Part shown: one piece after another, positions 13,161 to 53,575 of the stretch | Layout of the letters: each line of letters opens with the position of its first letter | Position numbering within the stretch: position 1 is the stretch's first letter | From: Owenia fusiformis | Lineage: Eukaryota; Annelida; Polychaeta; Sabellida; Oweniidae | Direction: 5' to 3' | DNA: 64,000 bases | NCBI GenBank assembly: GCA_903813345.2 | Contig: CAIIXF020000011.1 | Coordinates: 12,062,842 to 12,126,841 of the forward strand | Notes under the pieces: model-generated | Seen by the model: the letters and a program-made list of their open reading frames with translations, nothing else | What the model was told of the DNA's origin: nothing | Database searches by the model: none | Made by a program: the position numbers and the translations under genes

Positions 13161-13265
13161 ACTCTATACACGGTGGTAGAGTGGATATTTGCATAAATGA
13201 TGATATTTACGATCAGTTCACCATTGAGTGTGCTACATCTCTCTATCATTTAGACAGTTACTTTA

Positions 13266-16817: not shown

Positions 16818-17440
16818 CACATCTTCCAGTGGCTTGCTCATCTTCCAGTGGTTTGCTCATCTTCCAGAGGGTCGCTCATCTTCCAGTGGATTGCTCATCT
16901 TTCAGTGGCTGGCTCATCTTCCAGTGGCGTGCTCATCTTCCAGAGGCGTGCTCATTTTCCAAGGGGTGGATCATCTAGCGGTTGGATCATCTTCAAGGTT
17001 GCTCTTCTTCCACCAGATAGATCATCTTCAACTGGGAACTTGGTTTCCAATGGGTGACTTGTTTTGCAGTGTGTGGCTTGACTTCAAGTGGATCATCTTC
17101 AAGCGGGTGGATCATCTTCAAGCAGGTAGCTCATCTTCCAATGGAGGGATCATTTTCTAGAGGATAGCTTGCTTTCCAATGGGTAACTGGGCTTGCTCAT
17201 CTTCCAGTGAGTTGCTCATCTTCCAGTGAGTTGCTCATATCCAGGGAGTTGCTCATCTTCCAGCGGGTGAATTATCTTCCAGCGTGTGGATCATCTTCCA
17301 GTGGTTGGATCATCTTCTAGCAGTTTGATCATCTTCAAGGTTGCCATCTTCCACCAGATAGATCATCTTCAATTCTGGAGCTTGGCTTTCCAATGGGCGA
17401 CTTGTCTTGCAGTGTGTGGCTTCCAGTGTGTGGCTCAGGA
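16818..17440. repeat. Minisatellite block 0 (degenerate left edge)
   Basis: 19-bp units of the type GTTGCTCATCTTCCAGTGG are mixed with GTGGATCATCTTCAAGCGG variants and broken units. It is more diverged than the interior blocks. Open frames in all three plus frames result from the repeat. Confidence 0.85.
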
Positions 17441-17521
17441 GCTAGTGGGCTGATCACCTCCAAGCTAAAGGTAAATCTGGAAGAAATATTGTACATTAGG
17501 AAATAAAAATACTGTACTTAC

Positions 17522-17705
17522 TTGAACCCCACATCCTAGAGATATATCTTCCATCACAGACAGTGCTTCTTCAGCAACACACAGATATCACCAGAATAAC
17601 AATATATGAAGATACAGACGCTGCAGGCAGATGGTGTATATTGTAGTTACTCTCATAAACTCCTCGGAAAAACAGAAGCTTATCTTCAGGGGAAGAGGAG
17701 TGCAT
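17522..17705 (-). pseudogene. Degenerate exon A (relic of the array gene's last exon), unit 1
   Basis: On the minus strand an acceptor GTATGTACTTTCAG precedes ATGCAC, and a donor TTCAA/GTAAGTACAG ends the segment. The middle, CATCTGCCTGCAGCGTCTG, aligns base for base with CAGCTGTTTGCAGTGTTTG of the array gene's terminal exon, but all three frames contain stops. It is therefore a decayed copy of that exon with intact-looking splice sites. It could serve as a non-coding exon of the next gene copy. Equivalent segments begin near 22225, 27017, 32560 and 37230 in the other units. Confidence 0.6.
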
Positions 17706-18209
17706 CTGAAAGTACATACAAAATAGGAAAAGCTTAGCAGTGGTTTCAATTTTCAACAAGGTTTCAGTGATCAAGACACTATAATAACAGGTGGAGGAGG
17801 GAATACGAATCTCCAGTGAGATCATCTTTCAGCAGGTTGATCATCTTCCACCAGGTGGATCATCTTCCAGCTGATGGGTCATCTTTCAGGGAGTAGTTTG
17901 TCTTCAGATGAGTGGCTTGACTTTCAGCAGATGGCTTGTAATCTGGTAGAATGCTCGTATTGCAGGAGCTGGCTAATATTCTAGTGGGTGCCTCATCTTC
18001 CAGTGGATGGCTGGTCTTCAAATGATTTTTTTTATCTTTTTGAGGGTGGTTCCTCTTCCAGAGGATGGATAATCTTCCAGACGGCATTTTCTGTTCCAGT
18101 TGGTTACTTGGCTTCCAGTTTGTGGCTTAGATTCTAGTGGGCTGATCACCCCCATGCTAAAGGCAAATCTGAAATACTCTAAATTTGGAAATAAAACTTC
18201 TGTACTTAC

Positions 18210-18395
18210 TTGAGCAGGATCCTAGAGACTTTTCTCATCTTGAACAAAGCTACTGCAGTCGCAAAATGACATCACCAGAACAACAACATTTTATGTAGGT
18301 ACAGGTGCTAAAGACACAAGCTCCTTATTGTAGTTACGCTTTGAACCATCTCAGAAAGGGTAGACGTTTCTACCTCCAGGGTAAGAGAAGTGCAT
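18210..18395 (-). pseudogene. Degenerate exon B (relic of the array gene's last exon), unit 1
   Basis: It has the same architecture as exon A: acceptor ACTTACAG before ATGCAC and donor CTCAA/GTAAGTACAG. It aligns with exon A through GTAACTACAATA and CTGTACCTACATAAAATGTT. Stops occur in all frames. In copy 2 it starts at 22913. The upstream intron phrase GTCAGCAATGATTTAA is shared with the true last exon, which supports common origin. Confidence 0.6.
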
Positions 18396-18715
18396 CTGTA
18401 AGTACCTGTAAAATATGAAGTCAGCAATGATTTAAATTTTGATTTGTAGTTACAATGCCAAAATGATCGAGCCACTTTACAGGCGGAGGAGGGAATGCAA
18501 GGCATTCCTTTTATTGATCCTAGTAAATATCTCTTGGCCTTGTACCCCTCCCGGCTCAAGATTTACATCATCAAATCAACTAACTGCCTGAACAGAAGTA
18601 TCTCTGTAGAACATGAATTAAAATTATGTTTTTGAATATTGAATTGCCCCCACCCCCAAGACCAATATAATGAATAGTTTTATTTATCTTTTGATATGTA
18701 AAGCCAACATACACA

Positions 18716-21220
18716 TTATCTCCACATTTGCTCTACACTATAGCTACCCTCGTCCACGTGGGTGTAACGTTCCTGTTGTTTCTTTAGTTGCAGACACCTA
18801 TTAGTACAAGCAATAGCAACATGCTTTGTAGATACAAACACTGCAAACAGCTGACCCAAATCATTGATCCACTCCAAAACATCACAACCAGGGTAGAAAT
18901 TGTTATGACCTGAAAGTACTAAAAAAAAGGAAAAAAGTCAGCAATGATTTGACTTTTTTCCTTAAAAGAAATGAGTAAATATACCCATCTCACTGAAATG
19001 GCCATTTTCAGATATGAGTACATTTACATATTACTTTTAAGAGAATGCATGAACATGCAAAATGTCACCACTGGCCATGTGTTAAAGATGCATTTAGTTC
19101 CAGTAAGCCGAACACTAACTGATTACTGCCATCAAGAAGTTTCGTCCACTCACCAGTTTGAGAATATAACAATATGTCAACACTCTGTAGTGACATAAAA
19201 GTCAAATCATTGCCCAGTAAGTACAGTTGATTAAAAACTATAAACAAAAATCATAGCATTACTGAATTAATGGTCAAATTGTTGCTTTAAAAGCTAGCAT
19301 TATAATATTCAAATGATCAAGACCAAATTGATAGAACTAGAAATATTTTGTTGGTATAAGTCTCAGAATGAAAATTACCAAACACATGCAAACAGAACCA
19401 TTGTTCCCTGTGTTGCACCCAAGAACCTGCTTTGCTGGAAATACAAAAAATATGCTGTAATACTTGTTAAACTTAATATAACAATTTACATAAATTGCCC
19501 AAAATTAAAATCGAACAGAATGGGAGGGATGGAGTAAGGTAGTAATATATCTTAACTAAGTAATAAAATATTGCTTCCAGCTGTTCCCTGTGTGGCTGCT
19601 ACCAAGGTCATTCTTCTGGTGGACGTGTGATTCTGTGCAAGGAGAAAATTCATTTATGAGTAACTTCTGCATGAAACAGTAGTAGTTGTAGTCCAGAACA
19701 TTAGTAGTCTTTTATCTTCTTCACAACACCTACATTGAGAAAATGATTTAATTGACTACCTTAACTCCAAAGCATGCAAGGGATTATCATTTATTGCAAA
19801 AAATAACCTTAAAAATCTGAACAAGTCACCTTTGTCAATCAGAGTCTAGATCATAAATACCTAGACGGTTGATTGCTTTTTGGACCAAAACATGGTCGCA
19901 TTTACACTGACCTCAAAACAAGAAAAAAACAAGTTAAATTGAAAAATTGATGAAAGTTAAGATCATCTACCAACTCGCACTAAAAAAGAGAATGGAAGTC
20001 GAAAACTGAGATTAACATACTAAGGTATGTTAAGTCTCAGGTGAAAATGAGTTTACAAAAAAAAATATGAAGACAATATTTTCCAAATATGGCACACGTC
20101 TCTTCCATTTTGATATAAACCAGGTGGATTCCATTATTCTTTCATTTCAGAACATAGAATCTGTTAGGAAGCTTTCAGGCCAACACACCTTAACAAAGGA
20201 TCAAACAATGGGTGACCATCCCTTCGCTCATGTCGTATGCTGTCTAGAGAGATTAAGAAGAATAACAAGAATGACATCCTCGGCCATGCATAATTAGGAT
20301 ACATCACATTAAAAAGATGAAATACAAGACCATACCACTATCAATTCCCAATAGTATCTTTACTGTAACACTGATAAGCAATGTCTACCTACCTAAAGAG
20401 TGCAAGGTAACATGTATCAACCCCGAGGCCATTCCGTACAGATCCAAGTGGAATCTTGCTGCGTCCTCACAAGATCTCTGGATCACACTATATCCGTCAT
20501 AGCCAACTACTAACATTACAATACCAGCAAGTAAAAATGAGTGGACCTTCACCAGAGATCGACAATACCCCTCCAGAACGACCCAATGCATGCCGGCACC
20601 ACAGAATGCATTGAAGAAAGAAAATTCAGAATACCTCCTCCTGGTGGGTGCAAGACCCATCATTTTCACTCGCAAGTAAAGAATGTTTTCGCCAGCCATC
20701 AGAATATAGGCGAAACAAAGAACCAAGCTCAACAATAAGAATCCAACATGGAAACTGTTGGTCGGGACTTACAAGGAATCGATACCTGAAACCCATGCAT
20801 CCAGAGATTGATAGACACTGATCATCAGAATCACAGTGGAGGTACTACGAGGAACATCAAACGGTATGACCGAGTAAACCAGAGCTCTCAATGCAATGGA
20901 TCAGAATGACCCATGCTCAACAATGCCATTCTTAGATATTCCTCAAAATCAATCGGGACAACATAAAACCTGAACAATGGAAGGCCTCCCAACACTTGAT
21001 CCAGTGTTAAGACATGTTTAGCAATCCAGCCTCATAGCAGATTCCAGGTTCCTTCACTCCAGAATAATGGGTTGGCCAACAAAATCCACTGGTTCAATCA
21101 AAATGGAAAGTGTCCCACTAATCCAGAAGAATCGGCCGCTCCTAAATACCATAGAAAACCATAGATGGAAAACATGTCTAGCTGGCAGATGACCCCATAT
21201 GGAATGACTAATAGGATAAC
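18716..21220 (-). pseudogene. Array gene copy 1: multi-exon, putative membrane protein (intact 3' part, damaged 5' part)
   Basis: Product not recognised. Exons on the minus strand are: large exon ending 20393 (donor TTTAG/GTAGGT); 20243-20189; 19729-19665; 19632-19603; 19434-19379; 19184-19154; last exon 18909-18716. Phases agree at every junction, and AATAAA lies at 18684-18679, 32 bp past the stop. The large exon encodes hydrophobic stretches (FLLLSLVLCFAYIL, FLLAGIVMLVVGY), suggesting membrane segments. The last exon encodes DVLEWINDLGQLFAVFVSTK and ends EQMWR. The large exon has an in-frame TAA before VPTNSFHVGFLL, a frameshift near 20888, and further stops upstream (an extra TGA here). 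Either the copy is a pseudogene, or translation starts at the later MAGENILYL and gives about 245 residues. Confidence 0.6.
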
Positions 21221-21293
21221 TCAACAAATTTACTTAACTTAGGTGACAGGATCATCGCGATGAAGCTCATCTTTAGGTAGTGGATTCAAGGAG

Positions 21294-21960
21294 GTGACTC
21301 ATCTTCCAGTGGATGGCTCCTCTTCCAGTGGGTGGCTCCTCTTCCATGGGATTGTTCATCTTCCAGCGCCCAACGGGTGGCTTATCTTGCAGCGGGTGGC
21401 TTATCTTCCAGCGAGTTGCTCCTTTTCCAGCAAGTTGCTCCTCTTCCAGCGAGTTGCTCCTCTTCCAGCGAGTTGCTCATCTTCCAGTGAGTTGCTCCTC
21501 TTCCAGTGAGTTGCTCCTCTTCCAGTGAGTTGCTCCTCTTCCAGTGAGTTGCTCCTCTTCCAATGAGTTGCTTCTCTTCCAGTGAGTTGCTCATCTTCCA
21601 GTGAGTTGCTCATCTTCCAGTGGGTTGCTCCTCTTCCATTGGGTTGTTCATCTTCCAGTGGGTTGCTCATCTTCCAGTGGGTTGCTCATCTTCCAGTGGG
21701 TTGCTCATCTTCCAGTGAGTTGCTCATCTTCTAGATAGTTGCTCATCTTCCAGTGGGTTGCTCATCTTCCAGCGGATGAATTATCTTCCAGCGGGTGGAT
21801 CATCTTCTAGAAGTTTGATCATCTTCAAGGTTGCCATCTTCCACCAGATAGAACATCTTCAACTGGGAACTTGGCTTTCCAATGGGTGACTTGTCTTGCA
21901 GTGTGTGGCTTGCAGTGTGTGGCTTGCAGTGCGTGGCTTCCAGTGTGTGGCTCAGGTGCT
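21294..21960. repeat. Minisatellite block 1
   Basis: About 25 units of 19 bp (consensus GTTGCTCCTCTTCCAGYGA), then degenerate GGTGGATCATCTTC-type units and TGTGTGGCTTGCAG repeats. Because 19 is not a multiple of three, every frame on a strand gives the same periodic peptide. The apparent proteins (SSSELLLFQRVA on plus, SLEEEQLTGRGATHWKR on minus) are therefore not evidence of coding. Confidence 0.95.
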
Positions 21961-23233: not shown

Positions 23234-25737
23234 TTATCTCCACATTTGCTCTACACTATAGCTACCCTCGTCCACGTGGGTGTAACGTTCCTGTTGTTTC
23301 TTTAGTTGCAGACACCTATTAGTACCAGCAATAGCAACATGCTTTGTAGATACAAACACTGCAAACAGCTGACCCAAATCATTGATCCACTCCAAAACAT
23401 CACAACCAGGGTAGAAATTGTTATGACCTGAAAGTACTAAAAAAAGGAAAAAAGTCAGCAATGATTTGACTTTTTTCCTTAAAAGAAATGAGTAAATATA
23501 CCCATCTCACTGAAATGGCCATTTTCAGATATGAGTACATTTACATATTACTTTTAAGAGAATGCATGAACATGCAAAATGTCACCACTGGCCATGTGTT
23601 AAAGATGCATTTAGTTCCAGTAAGCCGAACACTAACTGATTACTGCCATCAAGAAGTTTCGTCCACTCACCAGTTTGAGAATATAACAATATGTCAACAC
23701 TCTGTAGTGACATAAAAGTCAAATCATTGCCCAGTAAGTACAGTTGATTAAAAACTATAAACAAAAATCATAGCATTACTGAATTAATGGTCAAATTGTT
23801 GCTTTAAAAGCTAGCATTATAATATTCAAATGATCAAGACCAAATTGATAGAACTAGAAATATTTTGTTGGTATAAGTCTCAGAATGAAAATTACCAAAC
23901 ACATGCAAACAGAACCATTGTTCCCTGTGTTGCACCCAAGAACCTGCTTTGCTGGAAATACAAAAAATATGCTGTAATACTTGTTAAACTTAATATAACA
24001 ATTTACATAAATTGCCCAAAATTAAAATCGAACAGAATGGGAGGGATGGAGTAAGGTAGTAATATATCTTAACTAAGTAATGAAATATTGCTTCCAGCTG
24101 TTCCCTGTGTGGCTGCTACCAAGGTCATTCTTCTGGTGGACGTGTGATTCTGTGCAAGGAGAAAATTCATTTATGAGTAACTTCTGCATGAAACAGTAGT
24201 AGTTGTAGTCCAGAACATTAGTAGTCTTTTATCTTCTTCACAACACCTACATTGAGAAAATGATTTAATTGACTACCTTAACTCCAAAGCATGCAAGGGA
24301 TTATCATTTATTGCAAAAAATAACCTTAAAAATCTGAACAAGTCACGTTTGTCAATCAGAGTCTAGATCATAAATACCTAGACGGTTGATTGCTTTTTGG
24401 ACCAAAACATGGTCGCATTTACACTGACCTCAAAACAAGAAAAAAAAAAGTTAAATTGAAAAATTGATGAAAGTTAAGATCATCTACCAACTCGCACCAA
24501 AAAAGAGAATGGAAGTCGAAAACTGAGATTAACATACTAAGGTATGTTAAGTCTCAGGTGAAAATGAGTTTACAAAAAAAAATATGAAGACAATATTTTC
24601 CAAATATGGCACACGTCTCTTCCATTTTGATATAAACCAGGTGGATTCCATTATTCTTTCATTTCAGAACATAGAATCTGTTAGGAAGCTTTCAGGCCAA
24701 CACACCTTAACAAAGGATCAAACAATGGGTGACCATCCCTTCGCTCATGTCGTATGCTGTCTAGAGAGATTAAGAAGAATAACAAGAATGACATCCTCGG
24801 CCATGCATAATTAGGATACATCACATTAAAAAGATGAAATACAAGACCATACCACTATCAATTCCCAATAGTATCTTTACTGTAACACTGATAAGCAATG
24901 TCTACCTACCTAAAGAGTGCAAGGTAACATGTATCAACCCCGAGGCCATTCCGTACAGATCCAAGTGGAATCTTGCTGCGTCCTCACAAGATCTCTGGAT
25001 CACACTATATCCGTCATAGCCAACTACTAACATTACAATACCAGCAAGTAAAAATGAGTGGACCTTCACCAGAGATCGACAATACCCCTCCAGAACGACC
25101 CAATGCATGCCAGCACCACAGAATGCATTGAAGAAAGAAAATTCAGAATACCTCCTCCTGGTGGGTGCAAGACCCATCATTTTCACTCGCAAGTAAAGAA
25201 TGTTTTCGCCAGCCATCAGAATATAGGCGAAACAAAGAACCAAGCTCAACAATAAGAATCCAACATGGAAACTGTTGGTCGGGACTTACAAGGAATCGAT
25301 ACCTGAAACCCATGCATCCAGAGATTGATAGACACTGATCATCAGAATCACAGTGGAGGTACTACGAGGAACATCAAACGGTATGACCGAGTAAACCAGA
25401 GCTCTCAATGCAATGGATCAGAATGACCCATGCTCAACAATGCCATTCTTAGATATTCCTCAAAATCAATCGGGACAACATAAAACATGAACAATGGAAG
25501 GCCTCCCAACACTTGATCCAGTGTTAAGACATGTTTAGCAATCCAGCCTCCTAGCAGATTCCAGGTTCCTTCACTCCAGAATAATGGGTTGGCCAACAAA
25601 ATCCACTGGTTCAATCAAAATGGAAGGTGTCCCACTAAACCAGAAGAATCGGCCGCTCCTAAATATCATAGAAAACCATAGATGGAAAACATGTCTAGCT
25701 GGCAGATGACCCCATATGGAATGACTAATAGGATAAC
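23234..25737 (-). pseudogene. Array gene copy 2
   Basis: Same exon set as copy 1, shifted by 4517 bp. Last exon 23427-23234, then 23701-23671, 23951-23896, 24149-24120, 24246-24182 and 24760-24706, with the large exon ending at 24910. All splice dinucleotides and phases are retained. The last exon differs by C to G in VAIAGTNRC. The in-frame TAA in the large exon is shared, but the TGA near 25550 present in copy 1 is absent, so the 69-codon upstream frame 25405-25614 (LFMFYVVPIDFEEYL) stays open. AATAAA follows the stop. The product is unknown and the coding status is uncertain, as for copy 1. Confidence 0.6.
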
Positions 25738-25810
25738 TCAACAAATTTACTTAACTTAGGTGACAGGATCATCGCGATGAAGCTCATCTTTAGGTAGTGG
25801 ATTCAAGGAG

Positions 25811-26740
25811 GTGACTCATCTTCCAGTGGATGGCTCCTCTTCCAGTGGGTGGCTCCTCTTCCAGTGGGTGGCTCCTCTTACATGGGATTGCTCATCTTCC
25901 AGCGCCAAACGGGTGGCTTATCTTGCAGCGGGGGGCTTATCTTCCAGCGAGTTGCTCCTCTTCCAGCGAGTTGCTCCTCTTCCAGCGAGTTGCTCCTCTT
26001 CCAGCGAGTTGCTCCTCTTCCAGCGAGTTGCTCCTCTTCCAGCGAGTTGCTCCTCTTCCAGCGAGTTGCTCCTCTTCAAGCGAGTTGTTCATCTTCCAGC
26101 GAGTTGCTCCTCTTCCAGCGAGTTGCTCCTCTTTCAGTGAGTTGCTCCTCTTCCAGTGAGTTGCTCCTCTTCCAGTGAGTTGCTTCTCTTCCAGTGAGTT
26201 GCTCATCTTCCAGTGAGTTGCTCATCTTCCAGTGAGTTGCTCATCTTCCAGTGAGTTGCTCTTCCAGTGAGTTGCTCCTCTTCCAGTGAGTTGCTTCTCT
26301 TCCAGTGAGTTGCTCATCTTCCAGTGAGTTGCTCATCTTCCAGTGGGTTGCTCCTCTTCCAATGGGTTGTTCATCTTCCAGTGGGTTGCTCATCTTCCAG
26401 TGGGTTGCTCATCTTCCAGTGGGTTGCTCATCTTCCAGTGAGTTGCTCATCTTCCAGTGAGTTGCTCATCTTCCAGTGAGTTGCTCATCTTCCAGTGAGT
26501 TGCTCATCTTCCAGATAGTTGCTCATATTCCAGATAGTTGCTCATCTTCCAGTGGGTTGCTCATCTTCCAGCGGATGAATTATCTTCCAGCGGGTGGATC
26601 ATCTTCTAGAAGTTTGATCATCTTCAAGGTTGCCATCTTCCACCAGATAGAACATCTTCAACTGGGAACTTGGCTTTCCAATGGGTGACTTGTCTTGCAG
26701 TGTGTGGCTTGCAGTGTGTGGCTTCCAGTGTGTGGCTCAG
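25811..26740. repeat. Minisatellite block 2 (longest regular block)
   Basis: Around 40 units of 19 bp occur in ordered variant zones: GTGGGTGG units, then CGAG units, then TGAG, GGG, TGAG and ATAG types. One 16-bp unit lacking CAT (TTGCTCTTCCAGTGAG) lies near 26255. The same short unit recurs in blocks 3, 4 and 5 at a comparable place. Confidence 0.95.
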
Positions 26741-28015: not shown

Positions 28016-31000
28016 TTATCTCCACATTTGCTCTACACTATAGCTACCCTCGTCCACGTGGGTGTAACGTTCCTGTTGTTTCTTTAGTTGCAGACTCCTA
28101 TTAGTACAAGCAATAGCAACATGCTTTGTAGATACAAACACTGCAAACAGCTGACCCAAATCATTGATCCACTCCAAAACATCACAACCAGGGTAGAAAT
28201 TGTTATGACCTGAAAGTACTAAAAAAAGGAAAAAAGTCAGCAATGATTTGACTTTTTTCCTTAAAAGCAATGAGTAAATATACCCATCTCACTGAAATGG
28301 CCATTTTCAGATATGAGTACATTTACATATTACTTTTAAGAGAATGCATGAACATGCAAAATGTCACCACTGGCCATGTGTTAAAGATGCATTTAGTTCC
28401 AGTAAGCCGAACACTAACTGATTACTGCCATCAAGAAGTTTCGTCCACTCACCAGTTTGAGAATATAAAAATATGTCAACACTCTGTAGTGACATAAAAG
28501 TCAAATCATTGCCCAGTAAGTACAGTTGATTAAAAACTATAAACAAAAATCATAGCATTACTGAATTAATGGTCAAATTGTTGCTTTAAAAGCTAGCATT
28601 ATAATATTCAAATGATCAAGACCAAATTGATAGAACTAGAAATATTTTGTTGGTATAAGTCTCAGAATGAAAATTACCAAACACATGCAAACAGAACCAT
28701 TGTTCCCTGTGTTGCACCCAAGAACCTGCTTTGCTGGAAATACAAAAAATATGCTGTAATACTTGTTAAACTTAATATAACAATTTACATAAATTGCCCA
28801 AAATTAAAATCGAACAGAATGGGAGGGATGGAGTAAGGTAGTAATATATCTTAACTAAGTAATGAAATATTGCTTCCAGCTGTTCCCTGTGTGGCTGCTA
28901 CCAAGGTCATTCTTCTGGTGGACGTGTGATTCTGTGCAAGGAGAAAATTCATTTATGAGTAACTTCTGCATGAAACAGTAGTAGTTGTAGTCCAGAACAT
29001 TAGTAGTCTTTTATCTTCTTCACAACACCTACATTGAGAAAATGATTTAATTGACTACCTTAACTCCAAAGCATGCAAGGGATTATCATTTATTGCAAAA
29101 AATAACCTTAAAAATCTGAACAAGTCACCTTTGTCAATCAGAGTCTAGATCATAAATACCTAGACGGTTGATTGCTTTTTGGACCAAAACATGGTCGCAT
29201 TTACACTGACCTCAAAACAAGAAAAAAAAAAGTTAAATTGAAAAATTGATGAAAGTTAAGATCATCTACCAACTCGCACCAAAAAAGAGAATGGAAGTCG
29301 AAAACTGAGATTAACATACTAAGGTATGTTAAGTCTCAGGTGAAAATGAGTTTACAAAAAAAAATATGAAGACAATATTTTCCAAATATGGCACACGTCT
29401 CTTCCATTTTGATATAAACCAGGTGGATTCCATTATTCTTTCATTTCAGAACATAGAATCTGTTAGGAAGCTTTAGAAATATTTTGTTGGTATAAGTCTC
29501 AGAATGAAAATTACCAAACACATGCAAACAGAACCATTGTTCCCTGTGTTGCACCCAAGAACCTGCTTTGCTGGAAATACAAAAGATATGCTGTAATACT
29601 TGTTAAACTTAATATAACAATTTACATAAATTGCCCAAAATTAAAATCGAACAGAATGGGAGGGATGGAGTAAGGTAGTAATATATCTTAACTAAGTAAT
29701 AAAATATTGCTTCCAGCTGTTCCCTGTGTGGCTGCTACCAAGGTCATTCTTCTGGTGGACGTGTGATTCTGTGCAAGGAGAAAATTCATTTATGAGTAAC
29801 TTCTGCATGAAACAGTAGTAGTTGTAGTCCAGAACATTAGTAGTCTTTTATCTTCTTCACAACACCTACATTGAGAAAATGATTTAATTAACTACCTTAA
29901 CTCCAAAGCATGCAAGGGATTATCATTTATTGCAAAAAATAACCTTAAAAATCTGAACAAGTCACCTTTGTCAATCAGAGTCTAGATCATAAATACCTAG
30001 ACGGTTGATTGCTTTTTGGACCAAAACATGGTCGCATTTACACTGACCTCAAAACAAGAAAAAAACAAGCTAAATTGAAAAATTGATGAAAGTTAAGATC
30101 ATCTACCAACTCGCACCAAAAAAGAGAATGGAAGTCGAAAACTGAGATTAACATACTAAGGTATGTTAAGTCTCAGGTGAAAATGAGTTTACAAAAAAAA
30201 ATATGAAGACAATATTTTCCAAATATGGCACACGTCTCTTCCATTTTGATATAAACCAGGTGGATTCCATTATTCTTTCATTTCAGAACATAGAATCTGT
30301 TAGGAAGCTTTCAGGCCAACACACCTTAACAAAGGATCAAACAATGGGTGACCATCCCTTCGCTCATGTCGTATGCTGTCTAGAGAGATTAAGAAGAATA
30401 ACAAGAATGACATCCTCGGCCATGCATAATTAGGATACATCACATTAAAAAGATGAAATACAAGACCATACCACTATCAATTCCCAATAGTATCTTTACT
30501 GTAACACTGATAAGCAATGTCTACCTACCTAAAGAGTGCAAGGTAACATGTATCAACCCCGAGGCCATTCCGTACAGATCCAAGTGGAATCTTGCTGCGT
30601 CCTCACAAGATCTCTGGATCACACTATATCCGTCATAGCCAACTACTAACATTACAATACCAGCAAGTAAAAATGAGTGGACCTTCACCAGAGATCGACA
30701 ATACCCCTCCAGAACGACCCAATGCATGCCGGCACCACAGAATGCATTGAAGAAAGAAAATTCAGAATACCTCCTCCTGGTGGGTGCAAGACCCATCATT
30801 TTCACTCGCAAGTAAAGAATGTTTTCGCCAGCCATCAGAATATAGGCGAAACAAAGAACCAAGCTCAACAATAAGAATCCAACATGGAAACTGTTGGTCG
30901 GGACTTACAAGGAATCGATACCTGAAACCCATGCATCCAGAGATTGATAGACACTGATCATCAGAATCACAGTGGAGGTACTACGAGGAACATCAAACGG

Positions 31001-31356
31001 TATGACCGAGTAAACCAGAGCTCTCAATGCAATGGATCAGAATGACCCATGCTCAACAATGCCATTCTTAGATATTCCTCAAAATCAATCGGGACAACAT
31101 AAAACATGAACAATGGAAGGCCTCCCAACACTTGATCCAGTGTTAAGACATGTTTAGCAATCCAGCCTCCTAGCAGATTCCAGGTTCCTTCACTCCAGAA
31201 TAATGGGTTGGCCAACAAAATCCACTGGTTCAATCAAAATGGAAGGTGTCCCACTAAACCAGAAGAATCGGCCGCTCCTAAATATCATAGAAAACCATAG
31301 ATGGAAAACATGTCTAGCTGGCAGATGACCCCATATGGAATGACTAATAGGATAAC
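28016..31356 (-). pseudogene. Array gene copy 3, with three exons duplicated
   Basis: Last exon 28209-28016, then 28483-28453, 28733-28678, 28931-28902 and 29028-28964. An 837-bp duplication then brings second copies of the last three at 29570-29515, 29768-29739 and 29865-29801. After that come 30379-30325 and the large exon ending at 30529. If transcribed, this copy could include three small exons twice. It shares the large-exon TAA with the other copies, while the upstream frame 31024-31233 is open. In the last exon there is a Cys to Ser change (TNRSLQ). AATAAA is retained. Confidence 0.6.
28636..30309. repeat. 837-bp internal tandem duplication in unit 3
   Basis: 28636-29472 is repeated as 29473-30309, with the junction at AAGCTT/TAGAAATATT showing at most 1-2 bp of microhomology. 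The right copy carries bases found otherwise only in unit 5: AAAAGATATG instead of AAAAAATATG, TTAATTAACT instead of TTAATTGACT, and AACAAGCTAAA instead of AACAAGTTAAA or AAAAGTTAAA. The left copy matches units 1, 2 and 4 at the first two sites. Confidence 0.9.
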
Positions 31357-31429
31357 TCAACAAATTTACTTAACTTAGGTGACAGGATCATCGCGATGAA
31401 GCTCAGCTTTAGGTAGTGGATTCAAGGAG

Positions 31430-32290
31430 GTGACTCATCTTCCAGTGGATGGCTCCTCTTCCAGTGGGTGGCTCCTCTTCCAGTGGGTGGCTCCTCTTCC
31501 ATGGGATTGCTCATCTTCCAGCGCCAAACGGGTGGCTTATCTTGCAGCGGGGGGCTTATCTTCCAGCGAGTTGCTCCTCTTCCAGCGAGTTGCTCCTCTT
31601 CCAGCGAGTTGCTCCTCTTCCAGCGAGTTGCTCCTCGTCAAGCGAGTTGCTCCTCGTCAAGCGAGTTGTTCATCTTCCAGCGAGTTGCTCCTCTTCCAGC
31701 GAGTTGCTCCTCTTTCAGTGAGTTGCTCCTCTTCCAGTGAGTTGCTTCTCTTCCAGTGAGTTGCTCATCTTCCAGTGAGTTGCTCATCTTCCAGTGAGTT
31801 GCTCTTCCAGTGAGTTGCTCCTCTTCCAGTGAGTTGCTTCTCTTCCAGTGAGTTGCTCATCTTCCAGTGAGTTGCTCATCTTCCAGTGGGTTGCTCCTCT
31901 TCCAGTGGGTTGTTCATCTTCCAGTGGGTTGCTCATCTTCCAGTGGGTTGCTCATCTTCCAGAAAGTTGCTCATCTTCCAGTGAGTTGCTCATCTTCCAG
32001 TGAGTTGCTCATCTTCCAGTGAGTTGCTCATCTTCCAGTAAGTTGCTCATGTTCCAGATAGTTGCGCATATTCCAGATAGTTGCTCATCTTCCAGTGGGT
32101 TGCTCATCTTCCAGCGGATGAATTATCTTCCAGCGGGTGGATCATCTTCTAGAAGTTTGATCATCTTCAAGGTTGCCATCTTCCACCAGATAGAACATCT
32201 TCAACTGGGAACTTGGCTTTCCAATGGGTGACTTGTCTTGCAGTGTGTGGCTTGCAGTGTGTGGCTTCCAGTGTGTGGCTCAGGTGCTAG
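31430..32290. repeat. Minisatellite block 3
   Basis: About 35 units of 19 bp with the same zone order as block 2 but fewer CGAG units. Two units have CTCCTCGTCAAGCGAG. The 16-bp short unit is near 31800. Confidence 0.95.
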
Positions 32291-33558: not shown

Positions 33559-36064
33559 TTATCTCCACATTTGGTCTACACTATAGCTACCCTCGTCCAC
33601 GTGGGTGTAACGTTCCTGTTGTTTCTTTAGTTGCAGACACCTATTAGTACAAGCAATAGCAACATGCTTTGTAGATACAAACACTGCAAACAGCTGACAA
33701 AAATCATTGATCCACTCCAAAACATCACAACCAGGGTAGAAATTGTTATGACCTGAAAGTACTAAAAAAAGGAAAAAAGTCAGCAATGATTTGACTTTTT
33801 TCCTTAAAAGAAATGAGTAAATATACCCATCTCACTGAAATGGCCATTTTCAGATATGAGTACATTTATATATTACTTTTAAGAGAATGCATGAACATGC
33901 AAAATGTCACCACTGGCCATGTGTTAAAGATGCATTTAGTTCCAGTAAGCCGAACACTAACTGATTACTGCCATCAAGAAGTTTCGTCCACTCACCAGTT
34001 TGAGAATATAAAAATATGTCAACACTCTGTAGTGACATAAAAGTCAAATCATTGCCCAGTAAGTACAGTTGATTAAAAACTATAAACAAAAATCATAGCA
34101 TTACTGAATTAATGGTCAAATTGTTGCTTTAAAAGCTAGCATTATAATATTCAAATGATCAAGACCAAATTGATAGAACTAGAAATATTTTGTTGGTATA
34201 AGTCTCAGAATGAAAATTACCAAACACATGCAAACAGAACCATTGTTCCCTGTGTTGCACCCAAGAACCTGCTTTGCTGGAAATACAAAAAATATGCTGT
34301 AATACTTGTTAAACTTAATATAACAATTTACATAAATTGCCCAAAATTAAAATCGAACAGAATGGGGGGGATGGAGTAAGGTAGTAATATATCTTAACTA
34401 AGTAATAAAATATTGCTTCCAGCTGTTATCTGTGTGGCTGCTACCAAGGTCATTCTTCTGGTGGACGTGTGATTCTGTGCAAGGAGAAAATTCATTTATG
34501 AGTAACTTCTGCATGAAACAGTAGTAGTTGTAGTCCAGAACATTAGTAGTCTTTTATCTTCTTCACAACACCTACATTGAGAAAATGATTTAATTGACTA
34601 CCTTAACTCCAAAGCATGCAAGGGATTATCATTTATTGCAAAAAATAACCTTAAAAATCTGAACAAGTCACCTTTGTCAATCAGAGTCTAGATCATAAAT
34701 ACCTAGACGGTTGATTGCTTTTTGGACCAAAACATGGTCGCATTTACACTGACCTCAAAACAAGAAAAAAAAACAAGTTAAATTGAAAAATTGATGAAAG
34801 TTAAGATCATCTACCAACTCGCACCAAAAAAGAGAATGGAAGTCGAAAACTGAGATTAACATACTAAGGTATGTTAAGTCTCAGGTGAAAATGAGTTTAC
34901 AAAAAAAAATATGAAGACAATATTTTCCAAATATGGCACACGTCTCTTCCATTTTGATATAAACCAGGTGGATTCCATTATTCTTTCATTTCAGAACATA
35001 GAATCTGTTAGGAAGCTTTCAGGCCAACACACCTTAACAAAGGATCAAACAATGGGTGACCATCCCTTCGCTCATGTCGTATGCTGTCTAGAGAGATTAA
35101 GAAGAATAACAAGAATGACATCCTCGGCCATGCATAATTAGGATACATCACATTAAAAAGATGAAATACAAGACCATACCACTATCAATTCCCAATAGTA
35201 TCTTTACTGTAACACTGATAAGCAATGTCTACCTACCTAAAGAGTGCAAGGTAACATGTATCAACCCCGAGGCCATTCCGTACAGATCCAAGTGGAATCT
35301 TGCTGCGTCCTCACAAGATCTCTGGATCACACTATATCCGTCATAGCCAACTACTAACATTACAATACCAGCAAGTAAAAATGAGTGGACCTTCACCAGA
35401 GATCGACAATACCCCTCCAGAACGACCCAATGCATGCCGGCACCACAGAATGCATTGAAGAAAGAAAATTCAGAATACCTCCTCCTGGTGGGTGCAAGAC
35501 CCATCATTTTCACTCGCAAGTAAAGAATGTTTTCGCCAGCCATCAGAATATAGGCGAAACAAAGAACCAAGCTCAACAATAAGAATCCAACATGGAAACT
35601 GTTGGTCGGGACTTACAAGGAATCGATACCTGAAACCCATGCATCCAGAGATTGATAGACACTGATCATCAGAATCACAGTGGAGGTACTACGAGGAACA
35701 TCAAACGGTATGACCGAGTAAACCAGAGCTCTCAATACAATGGATCAGAATGACCCATGCTCAACAATGCCATTCTTAGATATTCCTCAAAATCAATCGG
35801 GACAACATAAAACATGAACAATGGAAGGCCTCCCAACACTTGATCCAGTGTTAAGACATGTTTAGCAATCCAGCCTCCTAGCAGATTCCAGGTTCCTTCA
35901 CTCCAGAATAATGGGTTGGCCAACAAAATCCACTGGTTCAATCAAAATGGAAGGTGTCCCACTAAACCAGAAGAATCGGCCGCTCCTAAATATCATAGAA
36001 AACCATAAATGGAAAACATGTCTAGCTGGCAGATGACCCCATATGGAATGACTAATAGGATAAC
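33559..36064 (-). pseudogene. Array gene copy 4
   Basis: The exon pattern is that of copy 1, shifted by about 14842-14844 bp: last exon ending at stop 33559, 34026-33996, 34276-34221, 34474-34445, 34571-34507, 35087-35033, and the large exon ending near 35237. Small exon positions may be off by 1-2 bp because of poly-A length differences. Substitutions in the last exon give INDFCQLF and SVDQMWR. The 116-codon part of the large exon is identical in protein sequence to the other four copies. It shares the TAA, and the upstream frame 35732-35941 is open. Confidence 0.55.
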
Positions 36065-36137
36065 TCAACAAATTTACTTAACTTAGGTGACAGGATCATC
36101 GCGATGAAGCTCATCTTTAGGTAGTGGATTCAAGGAG

Positions 36138-36950
36138 GTGACTCATCTTCCAGTGGATGGCTCCTCTTCCAGTGGGTGGCTCCTCTTCCAGTGGGTGGCT
36201 CCTCTTCCATGGGATTGCTCATCTTCCAGAGCCAAACGGGTGGCTTATCTTGCAGCGGGGGGCTTATCTTCCAGCGAGTTGCTCCTCTTCCAGCGAGTTG
36301 CTCCTCTTCCAGCGAGTTGCTCCTCTTCAAGCGAGTTGTTCATCTTCCAGCGAGTTGCTCCTCTTCCAGCGAGTTGCTCCTCTTTCAGTGAGTTGCTCCT
36401 CTTCCAGTGAGTTGCTCCTCTTCCAGTGAGTTGCTTCTCTTCCAGTGAGTTGCTCATCTTCCAGTGAGTTGCTCATCTTCCAGTGAGTTGCTCTTCCAGT
36501 GAGTTGCTCCTCTTCCAGTGAGTTGCTTCTCTTCCAGTGAGTTGCTCATCTTCCAGTGAGTTGCTCATCTTCCAGTGGGTTGCTCCTCTTCCAGTGGGTT
36601 GTTCATCTTCCAGTGGGTTGCTCATCTTCCAGTGGGTTGCTCATCTTCCAGTGGGTTGCTCATCTTCCAGTGAGTTGCTCATCTTCCAGTGAGTTGCTCA
36701 TCTTCCAGTGAGTTGCTCATCTTCCAGATAGTTGCTCATATTCCAGATAGTTGCTCATCTTCCAGTGGGTTGCTCATCTTCCAGCGGATGAATTATCTTC
36801 CAGCGGGTGGATCATCTTCTAGAAGTTTGATCATCTTCAAGGTTGCCATCTTCCACCAGATAGAACATCTTCAACTGGGAACTTGGCTTTCCAATGGGTG
36901 ACTTGTCTTGCAGTGTGTGGCTTGCAGTGTGTGGCTTCCAGTGTGTGGCT
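36138..36950. repeat. Minisatellite block 4
   Basis: About 34 units of 19 bp, with the zone order of blocks 2 and 3 and fewer CGAG units. The 16-bp short unit is near 36487. Confidence 0.95.
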
Positions 36951-38228: not shown

Positions 38229-40734
38229 TTATCTCCACATTTGCTCTACACTATAGCTACCCTCGTCCACGTGGGTGTAACGTTCCTGTTGTTTCTTTAG
38301 TTGCAGACACCTATTAGTACAAGCAATAGCAACATGCTTTGTAGATACAAACACTGCAAACAGCTGACCCAAATCATTGATCCACTCCAAAACATCACAA
38401 CCAGGGTAGAAATTGTTATGACCTGAAAGTACTAAAAAAAGGAAAAAAGTCAGCAATGATTTGACTTTTTTCCTTAAAAGCAATGAGTAAATATACCCAT
38501 CTCACTGAAATGGCCATTTTCAGATATGAGTACATTTACATATTACTTTTAAGAGAATGCATGAACATGCAAAATGTCACCACTGGCCATGTGTTAAAGA
38601 TGCATTTAGTTCCAGTAAGCCGAACACTAACTGATTACTGCCATCAAGAAGTTTCGTCCACTCACCAGTTTGAGAATATAAAAATATGTCAACACTCTGT
38701 AGTGACATAAAAGTCAAATCATTGCCCAGTAAGTACAGTTGATTAAAAACTATAAACAAAAATCATAGCATCACTGAATTAATGGTCAAATTGTTGCTTT
38801 AAAAGCAAGCATTATAATATTCAAATGATCAAGACCAAATTGATAGAACTAGAAATATTTTGTTGGTATAAGTCTCAGAATGAAAATTACCAAACACATG
38901 CAAACAGAACCATTGTTCCCTGTGTTGCACCCAAGAACCTGCTTTGCTGGAAATACAAAAGATATGCTGTAATACTTGTTAAACTTAATATAACAATTTA
39001 CATAAATTGCCCAAAATTAAAATCGAACAGAATGGGAGGGATGGAGTAAGGTAGTAATATATCTTAACTAAGTAATAAAATATTGCTTCCAGCTGTTCCC
39101 TGTGTGGCTGCTACCAAGGTCATTCTTCTGGTGGACGTGTGATTCTGTGCAAGGAGAAAATTCATTTATGAGTAACTTCTGCATGAAACAGTAGTAGTTG
39201 TAGTCCAGAACATTAGTAGTCTTTTATCTTCTTCACAACACCTACATTGAGAAAATGATTTAATTAACTACCTTAACTCCAAAGCATGCAAGGGATTATC
39301 ATTTATTGCAAAAAATAACCTTAAAAATCTGAACAAGTCACCTTTGTCAATCAGAGTCTAGATCATAAATACCTAGACGGTTGATTGCTTTTTGGACCAA
39401 AACATGGTCGCATTTACACTGACCTCAAAACAAGAAAAAAACAAGCTAAATTGAAAAATTGATGAAAGTTAAGATCATCTACCAACTCGCACCAAAAAAG
39501 AGAATGGAAGTCGAAAACTGAGATTAACATACTAAGGTATGTTAAGTCTCAGGTGAAAATGAGTTTACAAAAAAAAATATGAAGACAATATTTTCCAAAT
39601 ATGGCACACGTCTCTTCCATTTTGATATAAACCAGGTGGATTCCATTATTCTTTCATTTCAGAACATAGAATCTGTTAGGAAGCTTTCAGGCCAACACAC
39701 CTTAACAAAGGATCAAACAATGGGTGACCATCCCTTCGCTCATGTCGTATGCTGTCTAGAGAGATTAAGAAGAATAACAAGAATGACATCCTCGGCCATG
39801 CATAATTAGGATACATCACATTAAAAAGATGAAATACAAGACCATACCACTATCAATTCCCAATAGTATCTTTACTGTAACACTGATAAGCAATGTCTAC
39901 CTACCTAAAGAGTGCAAGGTAACATGTATCAACCCCGAGGCCATTCCGTACAGATCCAAGTGGAATCTTGCTGCGTCCTCACAAGATCTCTGGATCACAC
40001 TATATCCGTCATAGCCAACTACTAACATTACAATACCAGCAAGTAAAAATGAGTGGACCTTCACCAGAGATCGACAATACCCCTCCAGAACGACCCAATG
40101 CATGCCGGCACCACAGAATGCATTGAAGAAAGAAAATTCAGAATACCTCCTCCTGGTGGGTGCAAGACCCATCATTTTCACTCGCAAGTAAAGAATGTTT
40201 TCGCCAGCCATCAGAATATAGGCGAAACAAAGAACCAAGCTCAACAATAAGAATCCAACATGGAAACTGTTGGTCGGGACTTACAAGGAATCGATACCTG
40301 AAACCCATGCATCCAGAGATTGATAGACACTGATCATCAGAATCACAGTGGAGGTACTACGAGGAACATCAAACGGTATGACCGAGTAAACCAGAGCTCT
40401 CAATGCAATGGATCAGAATGACCCATGCTCAACAATGCCATTCTTAGATATTCCTCAAAATCAATCGGGACAACATAAAACATGAACAATGGAAGGCCTC
40501 CCAACACTTGATCCAGTGTTAAGACATGTTTAGCAATCCAGCCTCATAGCAGATTCCAGGTTCCTTCACTCCAGAATAATGGGTTGGCCAACAAAATCCA
40601 CTGGTTCAATCAAAATGGAAGGTGTCCCACTAAACCAGAAGAATCGGCCGCTCCTAAATATCATAGAAAACCATAGATGGAATACATGTCTAGCTGGCAG
40701 ATGACCCCATATGGAATGACTAATAGGATAACTC
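38229..40734 (-). pseudogene. Array gene copy 5
   Basis: Exons follow copy 1 shifted by 19512 bp: last exon ending at stop 38229, 38696-38666, 38946-38891, 39144-39115, 39241-39177, 39755-39701, and the large exon ending at 39905. It carries AAAAGATATG, TTAATTAACT and AACAAGCTAAA, the variants also seen in the right half of the unit 3 duplication. Like copy 1 it has the TGA in the upstream frame (CCTCATAGCAG on plus). Splice sites, TAA and poly(A) signal are as in the others. Confidence 0.55.
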
Positions 40735-40807
40735 AACAAATTTACTTAACTTAGGTGACAGGATCATCGCGATGAAGCTCATCTTTAGGTAGTGGATTCA
40801 AGGAGGT

Positions 40808-41720
40808 GACTCATCTTCCAGTGGATGGCTCCTCTTCCAGTGGGTGGCTCCTCTTCCAGTGGGTGGCTCCTCTTCCATGGGATTGCTCCTCTTCCAGCAA
40901 GTTGCGCCTCTTCCAGCGAGTTGCTCCTCTTCCAGCGAGTCGCTCCTCTTCCAGCGGGTTGTTCATCTTCCAGTGAGTTGCTCCTCTTCCAGTGAGTTGC
41001 TCTTCCAGTGAGTTGCTCCTCTTCCAGTGAGTTGCTCCTCTTCCAGTGAGTTGCTTCTCTTCCAGTGAGTTGCTCATCTTCCAGTGAGTTGCTCATCTTC
41101 CAGTGGGTTGCTCCTCTTCCAGTGGGTTGTTCATCTTATCTTGCAGCGGGTGGCTTATCTTCCAGCGGGTTGCTCCTCTTCCAGTGAGTTGCTCCTCTTC
41201 CAGTGAGTTGCTCCTCTTCTAGTGGGTGGCTCCTCTTCCATGGGATTGCTTATCTTCCAGCGGGTGGATCGTCTTCCAGCGGGTCGTTCATCTTCCAGCG
41301 GGTGGATCATCTTCCAGCGGGTGGATCATCTTCCAGCGGGTGCATCATCTTCAAGCGGGTGGATCATCTTCCAGGGGTGGATCATCTTCCAGCGGGTGGA
41401 TCATTTTCCAGCAGGTGGATCATCTTTCAGTGGGTTGTTCATCTTCCAGTGGGTTGCTCATCTTCCAATGAGTTGCTCATCTGCCAGTGAGTTGCTCATC
41501 TTCCAGTGAGTTGCTCATCTTCCAGTGAGTTACCTATCTTCAAGTGGGTTGCTCATCTTCCAGTGAGTTGCTCCTCTTTCAGTGAGTTGCTCATCTTCCA
41601 GTGAGTTGCTCATCTTCCATTGGATGAATTATCTTCCAGTGGTTGGATCATCTTCAACTGGGAACTTGGCTTTTCAATGGGCGACTTGTCTTGCAGTGTG
41701 TGGCTTCCAGTGTGTGGCTC
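40808..41720. repeat. Minisatellite block 5 (diverged right edge)
   Basis: About 40 units of 19 bp, but with rearranged zones: a repeated CTTATCTTGCAGCGGGTGG start, a run of GGTGGATCATCTTCCAGCG units, and a missing CGAG zone. The 16-bp short unit is near 41003. It is less like blocks 2-4 than they are like one another. Confidence 0.9.
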
Positions 41721-42269
41721 AGGTGCTAGTGGGATGATCACCTTCAAGCTAAAGGTAAATCTGGAAGAAATATTGTACATTAGATAATAAAAATACTGTA
41801 CTTACTTGAACTGCATACCGATATATCTTCCATCCCGGACAATGCTTCTTCAGTAACACACAGATATCACCAGATTAACAATATCCTATGCAGGTACGGG
41901 CGCTGCAGGCAGATAGTGCATATTGTAGTTACTCTCTGAAACTCCTCGGAAAGGACAGAAACTTATTTCGGGGGAAAAGGAGTGCATCTGAAAGTACATA
42001 CAAAAAAGGAAAAGTTAGCAATGGTTTCAATTTTTAATTTTTCAACAAGACTTCACTGATCAAGACACTTCCATAACAGAGGGGAGGAGGGAATGCAAGA
42101 CATTCCTTGTATTGATTCTAGTAAATCTGTCTTAGCCTTGCACCACTCCGGGTCCAGATTTACATCATCAAGTCAACTGCCTGAAGAGAAGTATCTCTGT
42201 AGAGGTGAATCTGGTCTATATATTCTATTTCTTAGAACATGAATTATAATATTGTTTTTGAGTATTGAT
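41721..42269. repeat. Diverged partial unit 6, left piece (exon C relic)
   Basis: Homologous to the part of a unit from exon A onward but clearly more diverged. Exon C (41997-41806, minus) has acceptor ACTTTCAG before ATGCAC and donor TTCAA/GTAAGT. From about 42060 the sequence matches the region left of the gene in each unit (GGAGGAGGGAATGCAAG). It is cut by a foldback insertion at 42270. Confidence 0.8.
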
Positions 42270-42770
42270 ACTGGTGATCACTCAATTAAGCTGGTAAACA
42301 AACGTTTCGGTAACAAAATGTCGTAACGTCGAAGGTATGATTTTTCTTTTTTCCCTATTCCACGCGTTGTAGGCAGAATCTCCACGACGTTTTTTCTCAC
42401 AAACGTGTATCAGTATCATATGTTTTAGAAAATGTACATGTTTGCGAAAAAATAGCTCAGAAGACAACCGAATCGTCGATTTAATTCCTCACTTAAGTTA
42501 CAGAAAAGGTTTGGGTTAAAAGTGTAGATCTTAACTGTTTTTTTCGAAATACCGTTTCTGCAACTTAGTGAGGAATTAATTCAACGATTCTGTTTTCTTC
42601 TGAACTATTTGTTCCCAAATGTGTAGTTGAACACATGTTACTGATACACGTTTCTGTTAAAAATGCCGTGAGAATTCTGCCTTCAAGGTGTGAAATAAGG
42701 AAAAAAGAAAAATCGTAGCTTCGATGTTCCGACATTTTGTTACCGAAACGTTTGTTTCGGTAACCAGCGT
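42270..42770. mobile_element. Foldback element, CTGGTGATC family, copy 2
   Basis: Two long arms of roughly 240 bp face each other. ACGTCGAAGGTATGATTTTT on the left pairs with a complement ending near 42735, and GAATTAATTCAACGATTCTG pairs near 42475. It is the same family as 53576-54104. The right terminus is truncated: the sequence passes from TAACCAGCG straight into minisatellite-like CTTCCAGTGG. Confidence 0.85.
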
Positions 42771-43250
42771 CTTCCAGTGGATGGATCTTCTTCTAGAGGG
42801 CAGCCCCAGGAAGGCAGCTTGCCTTCAAATGGGGAACTTTACTTCCAGTTTGTGGCTCAGGGGCCTAATTTATGAAAGATTCTAGTGCAGTGGGCTGATG
42901 ACCTCCAAACTAAAGATAAATCTGGAAAAAATATTGTACATTAGGAAATAAAAATACTGTACTTACTTGAACTGCATCCTAGAGATGTATCTTCCACACT
43001 AGACAATGCTTCTTCAGTAAAACAGATATCACCAGAATAACAATATCATATGCAGATACAGGCGCTGCAGGGAGATGGTGCATATTGTAGTTACATTGTA
43101 CCTTCTAAAACCTCACAGAAAGGACAGAAACATATCTTTAAAGGAAGAGGAGTGCATCTGAAAGTACATACAAAAAAGGAAAGGTTAGCAATGATTTAAT
43201 TTTTCAATTTTTAAGAAGGCTTCGGTGATCAAGACATTTCCATAACATAG
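42771..43250. repeat. Diverged partial unit, right piece (exon D relic)
   Basis: A second degenerate copy of the 41660-42060 region: TGGGCTGATGACCTCCAAAC, then exon D (43157-42967, minus) with acceptor ACTTTCAG before ATGCAC and donor TTCAA/GTAAGT. Stops occur in all frames. Confidence 0.75.
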
Positions 43251-48763: not shown

Positions 48764-48786
48764 TTACATGCATTCATCACTTTGGA

Positions 48787-53570: not shown

Positions 53571-53575
53571 TCAAG

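What the first reader, a model, noticed from the sequence alone, without database searches (positions are those of the whole stretch)
16818..43250. Hierarchical tandem array built around a spliced gene
Repetition exists at four nested scales. There are five ~4.5-5.6 kb units, an 837-bp duplication inside one unit, two extra decayed copies of the gene's last exon in every unit, and a 19-bp minisatellite separating the units. A gene family amplified in this way, with the minisatellite possibly seeding unequal exchange, is not a structure I can match to a known named system.
Basis: partly seen in the sequence, partly recalled or inferred. Interest (0 to 1): 0.85.

Follow-up and report, generated by a model that had tools for sequence, protein, structure and literature searches.

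The report
Amplified genes for giant hairpin RNA
What looked like a repeated protein gene is most likely a family of about 138 non-coding gene copies, each predicted to make an RNA that folds into a one-kilobase hairpin kept by natural selection, a larger and older relative in style of the hairpin genes that flies use to make silencing RNAs.

Summary
The nested repetition is real: five 4.5-5.6 kb units, an 838-bp duplication in unit 3, repeated exon-like blocks and a 19-bp minisatellite between units. The "gene", however, is probably not protein-coding. Its 127-aa frame is open end to end in only 13 of 138 copies, has no Pfam or PDB match, and sits in the apex of an imperfect 1.08-kb inverted repeat. 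As minus-strand RNA this repeat folds into one giant hairpin (-433 kcal/mol, z -11.7; plus strand -278, z -6.1). Between a tandem and a dispersed type of copy the arms differ by 6-9%, the apex by 25%, the downstream DNA by 20-24%. Of 37 stem pairs that changed, 28 still pair, against 50% expected (0 of 5000 relocations). A 25-mer from the stem occurs 138 times in the 498-Mb genome with up to 3 mismatches, control 0. Best reading: a tandem and dispersed non-coding gene family whose right-to-left RNA forms a giant hairpin, probably a small-RNA precursor like Drosophila hpRNA clusters but larger, apparently older and less perfectly paired. Transcription, processing and targets are not shown.

The parts
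20058..21137 (-). Giant hairpin, unit 1: 5' arm about 21120-20710, apex about 20709-20470, 3' arm about 20469-20075
   Evidence: Fold -433.3 kcal/mol for 20080-21130, z -11.7; 408 predicted pairs, 94.6% of cells paired across 28 copies, slid controls 39-46%
24575..25654 (-). Giant hairpin, unit 2
   Evidence: Row W2 of alignment A1; 99.6% identical to unit 1
30194..31273 (-). Giant hairpin, unit 3 (coordinates by offset)
   Evidence: Offset from the match (99.6%)
34902..35981 (-). Giant hairpin, unit 4 (coordinates by offset)
   Evidence: Offset from the 127-aa frame; 99.2%
39570..40649 (-). Giant hairpin, unit 5 (coordinates by offset)
   Evidence: Offset from the 127-aa frame; 99.4%
20388..20768 (-). 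127-aa stop-to-stop frame across the hairpin apex; judged a by-product, not a coding exon
   Evidence: Open end to end in 13 of 138 copies; no Pfam or PDB match
18963..19039 (-). Small stem-loop of pre-miRNA size, downstream of the giant hairpin
   Evidence: 160-nt stretch folds at -44.4 kcal/mol, z -6.0 in W1 and L004; -2.3, -3.7 and -4.8 in L028, L031 and L001
18928..18962 (-). 13-bp hairpin covering the branch point and pyrimidine tract before block c
   Evidence: A-run and T-run 6/6 in W1 and 5/5 in L028, but 6/7 in L001
18720..18909 (-). Exon-like block c with conserved 3' splice-site-like end (lower end approximate)
18136..18440 (-). Exon-like block b, unit 1
   Evidence: About 73% identity to block a of the other units; acceptor and GTAAGT donor
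17444..17756 (-). Exon-like block a, unit 1
42885..43250 (-). Most upstream exon-like block (z) at the right-hand, 5' end of the array
   Evidence: 85% to block a; alignment
41723..42082 (-). Exon-like block y at the 5' end of the array
16820..17336 (.). 19-bp minisatellite at the 3' end of the array
21298..21826 (.). 19-bp minisatellite between units 1 and 2
25815..26606 (.). 19-bp minisatellite between units 2 and 3
31434..32149 (.). 19-bp minisatellite between units 3 and 4
36142..36855 (.). 19-bp minisatellite between units 4 and 5
40810..41655 (.). 19-bp minisatellite upstream of unit 5
28637..30311 (.). Tandem 838-bp duplication inside unit 3, junction at 29474

Best explanation
The array is one cluster of a non-coding gene family transcribed right to left (minus strand). 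Each unit is read from an exon-like block and minisatellite into a 1.08-kb sequence whose RNA folds back into a single giant hairpin (about 500 opposed positions, about 400 pairs including about 75 G.U), then into a small stem-loop and a hairpin-masked 3' splice site that leads to exon-like block c. Selection has kept the pairing of the stem, not a reading frame. Most likely the double-stranded stem is cut by Dicer-type enzymes into small RNAs, as in Drosophila hpRNA clusters, with copy number raising dose. Shown by computation: the predicted hairpin, its strand preference, its conservation, pair-keeping changes in the stem, and 138 copies. Inferred: transcription, splicing, Dicer processing (about 0.5 given the rest), dose and any target.
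For: Minus-strand fold -433.3 against -305.8, sd 10.9, in 24 shuffles; plus strand -277.9 against -224.7, sd 8.6. Seven copies folded (window, three other places on C11, two on C12, one on C2; the broken L003 was left out) give -433 to -472 on this strand and -268 to -311 on the other. Stem pairs changed between the two consensus types: 28 of 37 kept on the tandem-type fold (null 0.50, sd 0.04, 0 of 5000), 26 of 41 on the dispersed-type fold (null 0.42, sd 0.04, 0 of 5000); changes on both sides that keep the pair 3 and 3 against about 0.6 expected, p 0.021 and 0.026. Strand-symmetric arm alignment of W1: 337 of 502 Watson-Crick, G.U 77, A.C 9. Hairpin less diverged than downstream DNA in separate contrasts: L028-L030 2.3-2.7% against 15.5%; W1-L002 2.5-5.1% against 12.8%. 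The same copy number, 138, from two different searches.
Against: No RNA data of any kind. G+T is also 0.46-0.60 in the non-hairpin stretch 20100-18150, so strand-biased mutation may explain part of the G.U excess. In the apex only 13 of 28 changed pairs are kept, and the apex is barely more stable than shuffles in five dispersed copies (z -1.1 to -2.2). W1-L028 and W1-L031 apices (27-28%) diverge more than downstream DNA (20-21%), and the close pair L030-L031 shows no contrast. The arms are only 67% Watson-Crick. No target was found: no Pfam family for the frames tried, and counts equal to family size for the two most conserved stem patches. Low hairpin divergence could also come from gene conversion between copies. 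The 27 loci were picked from apex-frame hits, which favours intact copies; one of them (L003) is broken.
Confidence: 0.66

Rival explanations
1. The hairpin acts as DNA, not RNA: a long imperfect palindrome that serves as a recombination, replication or chromatin element, with the strand bias left by transcription-linked mutation.
For: On the large contigs the copies lie in stretches of about 10 Mb of C2, C11 and C12, and the G+T excess extends, more weakly, beyond the hairpin.
Against: Changes keep G.U pairs of one strand beyond a null that holds the substitution types fixed, and A.C oppositions, which would be G.U on the other strand, are rare. A DNA palindrome should favour Watson-Crick matches equally on both strands; the arms are only 67% Watson-Crick.
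Confidence: 0.14
2. Neutral satellite or transposon: the unit spreads by itself and the inverted repeat is a relic.
For: Tandem arrays with nearly identical units plus dispersed single copies with different flanks.
Against: In six of seven pairs compared the arms are 2 to 8 times less diverged than the downstream DNA (L030-L031 is the exception). No Rfam match, no Pfam match over its cut-off in the six frames tried. Scored matches are whole hairpins, apart from truncated pieces beside arrays (C11:11.97 and 12.71 Mb) and the duplicated piece in unit 3. No match outside C2, C11, C12 and three small contigs was scored.
Confidence: 0.1
3. One reading: an amplified spliced protein-coding gene.
For: A 127-aa frame identical in all five window units and splice-like sites shared between copies.
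Against: Frame open end to end in 13 of 138 copies; the apex, where the frame lies, is the part that differs most between types, 25%; the block a-b-c stretch carries stops in all three minus frames; no Pfam or PDB match.
Confidence: 0.05

Closest known systems
Drosophila hpRNA clusters (hp-CG4068, hp-tHMG; PMC10317233, passages and section 12 seen)
   Same: Hairpin genes in tandem copies (hp-CG4068: 20 in D. melanogaster, 9 in D. simulans; hp-tHMG cluster: 13), also dispersed copies; for hp-tHMG-solo a spliced transcript with the hairpin near its 5' end and a local duplication inside the locus.
   Different: Here 138 copies, a 1.08-kb hairpin only 67% Watson-Crick (about 82% with G.U in W1), conserved between types on three large contigs, with a minisatellite between units and no known target or siRNAs. 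That fly hpRNAs as a class have nearly perfect arms is partly recalled; the passage seen says so for the hp-tHMG cluster.
MicroRNA precursors (recalled, not searched beyond Rfam)
   Same: Imperfect stem with G.U pairs and a freer loop; a stem-loop of pre-miRNA size lies downstream.
   Different: About ten times longer; no mature product known; no Rfam match over threshold.
Transcribed satellite DNA (recalled)
   Same: Head-to-tail arrays homogenised within a cluster.
   Different: Local conservation of pairing and of splice-like sites; dispersed single copies.

Membership tests
hpRNA (endo-siRNA hairpin) loci | Long inverted repeat that folds into an extended hairpin in the RNA | tested here: met
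   Predicted folds and shuffles; transcription itself not testable
hpRNA (endo-siRNA hairpin) loci | High, often near-perfect complementarity of the arms (general rule recalled; stated for hp-tHMG) | tested here: not met
   67% Watson-Crick, about 82% counting G.U in W1; 66-69% Watson-Crick in 11 copies
hpRNA (endo-siRNA hairpin) loci | Dicer-dependent siRNAs from the stem | not testable with these tools
   No small-RNA data
hpRNA (endo-siRNA hairpin) loci | Arms homologous to a target gene or group of loci | tested here: inconclusive
   No Pfam match; scored protein-mode matches lie at family loci or truncated pieces of them (150 of 281 candidates scored); two stem patches give 138 and 137 sites, the family size; the rest of the stem was not searched
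hpRNA (endo-siRNA hairpin) loci | Frequent tandem or dispersed amplification | tested here: met
Any Rfam RNA family | Score above the gathering threshold | tested here: not met
   0 in 64 kb; best sub-threshold match in 17400-22350 is a snoRNA model, 20.9 bits against 45, E 0.046
Protein-coding gene family | Open frame kept across copies | tested here: not met
   13 of 138
Dispersed transposon | Element proteins in the unit, or the repeat arm scattered alone through the genome | tested here: inconclusive
   None seen, but only six frames were scanned and the genome searches score only the best candidates; truncated pieces lie beside arrays

The most novel reading that the evidence does not exclude
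A previously undescribed class of giant structured non-coding RNA: a 1.08-kb, about 400-pair hairpin kept by selection in 138 copies that are confined to stretches of three large contigs, in two types with different apices, acting as a regulator specific to those chromosome regions (for example silencing selfish or amplified genes there) and not only as an ordinary siRNA source.
Probability: 0.27. Interest if true: 0.85.

Novelty: new variant of a known kind. Interest (0 to 1): 0.64.

Why it matters
The fly hairpin-RNA genes in the paper seen emerged recently and take part in conflicts with selfish genes (PMC10317233, section 12 and abstract). A hairpin family with lasting conservation of pairing, at this size and copy number, would show that such genes can become long-lived, and 138 copies make the question testable with one small-RNA library. 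It also shows that a reading frame conserved letter for letter in a recent array can be a by-product of RNA structure.

Tried and rejected
Protein reading of the apex: Pfam, PDB and genome searches speak against it; no structure prediction was run. One search gave one match below its cut-off for the 84-aa frame 18308-18562 (PF05815, E 0.03, 14.1 bits against 25), taken as chance. The 87-aa antisense frame and three X-masked hairpin frames against Pfam: nothing. Reading of the minisatellite as a coding repeat: each of three minus frames carries 7-16 stops per array, though runs of up to 116 aa stay open. Fixed 500-nt folding windows over the whole window ranked this hairpin only weakly (one apex, unit 3, at -2.3 robust sd) because it needs 1 kb; they showed other inverted repeats with nearly equal energy on both strands. 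Organism: COX1 and GFP models gave nothing, the arthropod cuticle model gave nothing and C1q gave three matches; no control rang for GFP, cuticle or C1q, so these are weak, and the organism stays unknown (an animal, by inference from C1q and a Fringe-type match). Target search by two stem patches: counts equal the family size (only the first 100 places of each were listed). Literature searches for a named match found the Drosophila hpRNA clusters and, in the rows listed, no description of this family; most subscription papers are not held. Of PMC4710571 only passages were seen; all other papers were seen as search listings only, except PMC10317233 (passages and section 12).
Full report
What was checked. 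The window is G000:C11:12062842-12126841 in a 498-Mb genome of 525 contigs. Units 2-5 are 99.2-99.6% identical to unit 1 over 18460-21140.

Not a protein gene. The one long frame, 127 aa on the minus strand, is identical in all five window units and looks membrane-like, but has no Pfam or PDB match. One search scored 150 of 155 candidates in the genome and gave 144 rows at 138 places; six places on C12 appear as two rows each because of a frameshift. The frame is open end to end at 13 of 138, all in the clusters at 11.96, 12.08 and 12.37-12.40 Mb. The other 78 of 91 copies of the main C11 region, the copy at C11:6.9 Mb and the 40 dispersed copies carry one or more stops. A second frame, on the plus strand in the 3' arm, is free of stops in part of the scored rows only.

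What it is. The frame lies in the apex of an imperfect inverted repeat of about 1.08 kb. As minus-strand RNA, 20080-21130 folds into one hairpin of -433.3 kcal/mol; 24 dinucleotide shuffles average -305.8, sd 10.9 (z -11.7). The plus strand gives -277.9 against -224.7, sd 8.6 (z -6.1). Seven copies folded give -433 to -472 on the minus strand and -268 to -311 on the plus strand, with 389-407 pairs, 67-77 of them G.U; the eighth aligned copy, L003, is broken and was not folded.

Conservation. I fetched 27 further loci and later 4 more. The full-length hairpin is present in 26 of the first 27 and in the 4 later ones; L003 (C11:6.9 Mb) is broken by deletions and an insertion with 47-bp inverted ends. 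The first 27 were chosen, so intact apices are favoured. Alignment A1 holds 28 hairpins: two window units and 26 loci, without L003. Two types exist: tandem (C11 arrays and C12:18.9 Mb) and dispersed (C2, C11 7-9 Mb, C12, small contigs). Between the type consensus sequences the arms differ by 6.3% and 9.2% and the apex by 24.9%; the downstream part differs by about 24% (W1 against L004, L030, L031) or 20-21% (W1 against L028, L031, shorter stretch). Within types the hairpin, apex included, differs by about 2-6% in the pairs compared, while downstream DNA differs by 10.5-15.5% in L028-L030, L029-L031, W1-L001 and W1-L002. The close pair L030-L031 shows no contrast (hairpin 1-3%, downstream 1.2%).

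Pairing is what is kept. On the predicted structure of unit 1, 94.6% of cells in 28 copies pair, against 39-46% when partners are slid by 1-3 columns; this control favours the source structure. The better test moves the observed substitutions to random stem sites of the same base. On the tandem-type consensus fold 28 of 37 changed stem pairs are kept (0.76; null 0.50, sd 0.04; 0 of 5000); on the dispersed-type fold 26 of 41 (0.63; null 0.42, sd 0.04; 0 of 5000). Changes on both sides that keep the pair number 3 in each, against about 0.6 expected (p 0.021 and 0.026). On the tandem-type fold 25 of the 28 kept changes are one-sided and go to or from G.U. In the apex the picture is different: 13 of 28 changed pairs are kept, and the dispersed type folds there into a branched shape hardly beyond shuffles. 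A strand-symmetric alignment of the two arms of unit 1 gives 337 of 502 Watson-Crick, 77 G.U and 9 A.C; ten other copies of the 28 were tested and are similar, 64-77 against 6-13. Against a purely structural reading: G+T, 0.52-0.63 in the hairpin, is 0.46-0.60 between 20100 and 18150, as transcription-linked mutation might give. That would itself point to minus-strand transcription, but it means the G.U excess is not proof alone.

Other parts. Downstream of the hairpin lie a stem-loop of about 77 nt and a 13-bp hairpin that covers the branch point and pyrimidine tract before block c (z of the 160-nt stretch -6.0 in W1 and L004, -2.3, -3.7 and -4.8 in L028, L031 and L001). The acceptor of the a/b blocks recurs in L004 and L005 and the GTAAGT donor in L003, L004 and L005; the acceptor of block c recurs in L004 and L028-L031. 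L003-L005 also keep the order block, minisatellite, hairpin, so this order seems part of the unit. These look like splice sites; no transcript data exist here.

Number and place. Counted: 91 copies in 19 clusters (my grouping; two are single copies) on C11 9.2-16.0 Mb, 1 at C11:6.9 Mb, 6 in an array at C12:18.9 Mb and 40 dispersed on C2, C11, C12 and contigs C124, C265 and C483. A 25-mer invariant in all 28 aligned hairpins has 138 sites in the genome with up to 3 mismatches (control 0); the 100 sites listed are perfect. A 22-mer of the other arm has 137 with up to 2 mismatches (control 0 forward, 1 reverse). The agreement supports 138 copies that hold apex and stem, and leaves no room for extra, target-like sites of the 25-mer. 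One search shows a few truncated pieces besides (C11:11.97 and 12.71 Mb).

How it most likely works. The anatomy (long minus-strand hairpin in an apparently spliced unit, tandem amplification, dispersed copies, local internal duplications) resembles what PMC10317233 describes for Drosophila hpRNA loci (passages and section 12): tandem hp-CG4068 with 20 copies, a 13-copy hp-tHMG cluster, and a spliced hp-tHMG-solo transcript with the hairpin near its 5' end. I therefore think a precursor of Dicer-made small RNAs most likely. I do not file it as an hpRNA: arm complementarity is lower than I expect of that class, and siRNAs and target could not be shown. A stable double-stranded RNA that binds proteins is the main alternative use.

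Limits. The organism is unknown; no expression data; cross-species comparison was impossible; the genome search scores only the best candidates for long queries.

Noticed in passing
window:3251-3750, 48251-49000, 42251-42750, 53501-54250, 13251-14000, 55501-56250: Other strong inverted repeats with nearly equal folding energy on both strands, probably MITE-like; the one at 42265-42782 sits inside the array and matches 53577-54108.
   Followed up: partly
window:15447-16249: 116-bp tandem repeat just outside the array; by eye, similar motifs follow block c in dispersed copies L028 and L029, so it may belong to the wider neighbourhood of the family.
   Followed up: no
window:57026-57745: Frame with a Fringe Pfam match over its cut-off and a galactosyltransferase match just under it, the only clear host-type protein match among the seven flanking frames scanned.
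   Followed up: no
window:50585-51100: zf-RVT match, remnant of a LINE-type element.
   Followed up: no
L003:2826-4113: Insertion of about 1.3 kb with 47-bp inverted ends inside a hairpin copy at C11:6.9 Mb, which is also deleted in part.
   Followed up: partly
L006:5125-5709: Insertion of about 580 bp inside the small stem-loop of one unit at C11:11.6 Mb.
   Followed up: no
G000 C2 9.6-20.0 Mb, C11 6.9-16.0 Mb, C12 15.1-25.9 Mb: All 138 places that are not on small contigs lie in stretches of about 10 Mb of only three large contigs (35.8, 37.3 and 36.7 Mb long); the reason is unknown.
   Followed up: no
hairpin apex, window:20470-20709: The apex is conserved within each of the two hairpin types but differs by 25% and by indels between them, as if two apex versions were kept.
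   Followed up: partly
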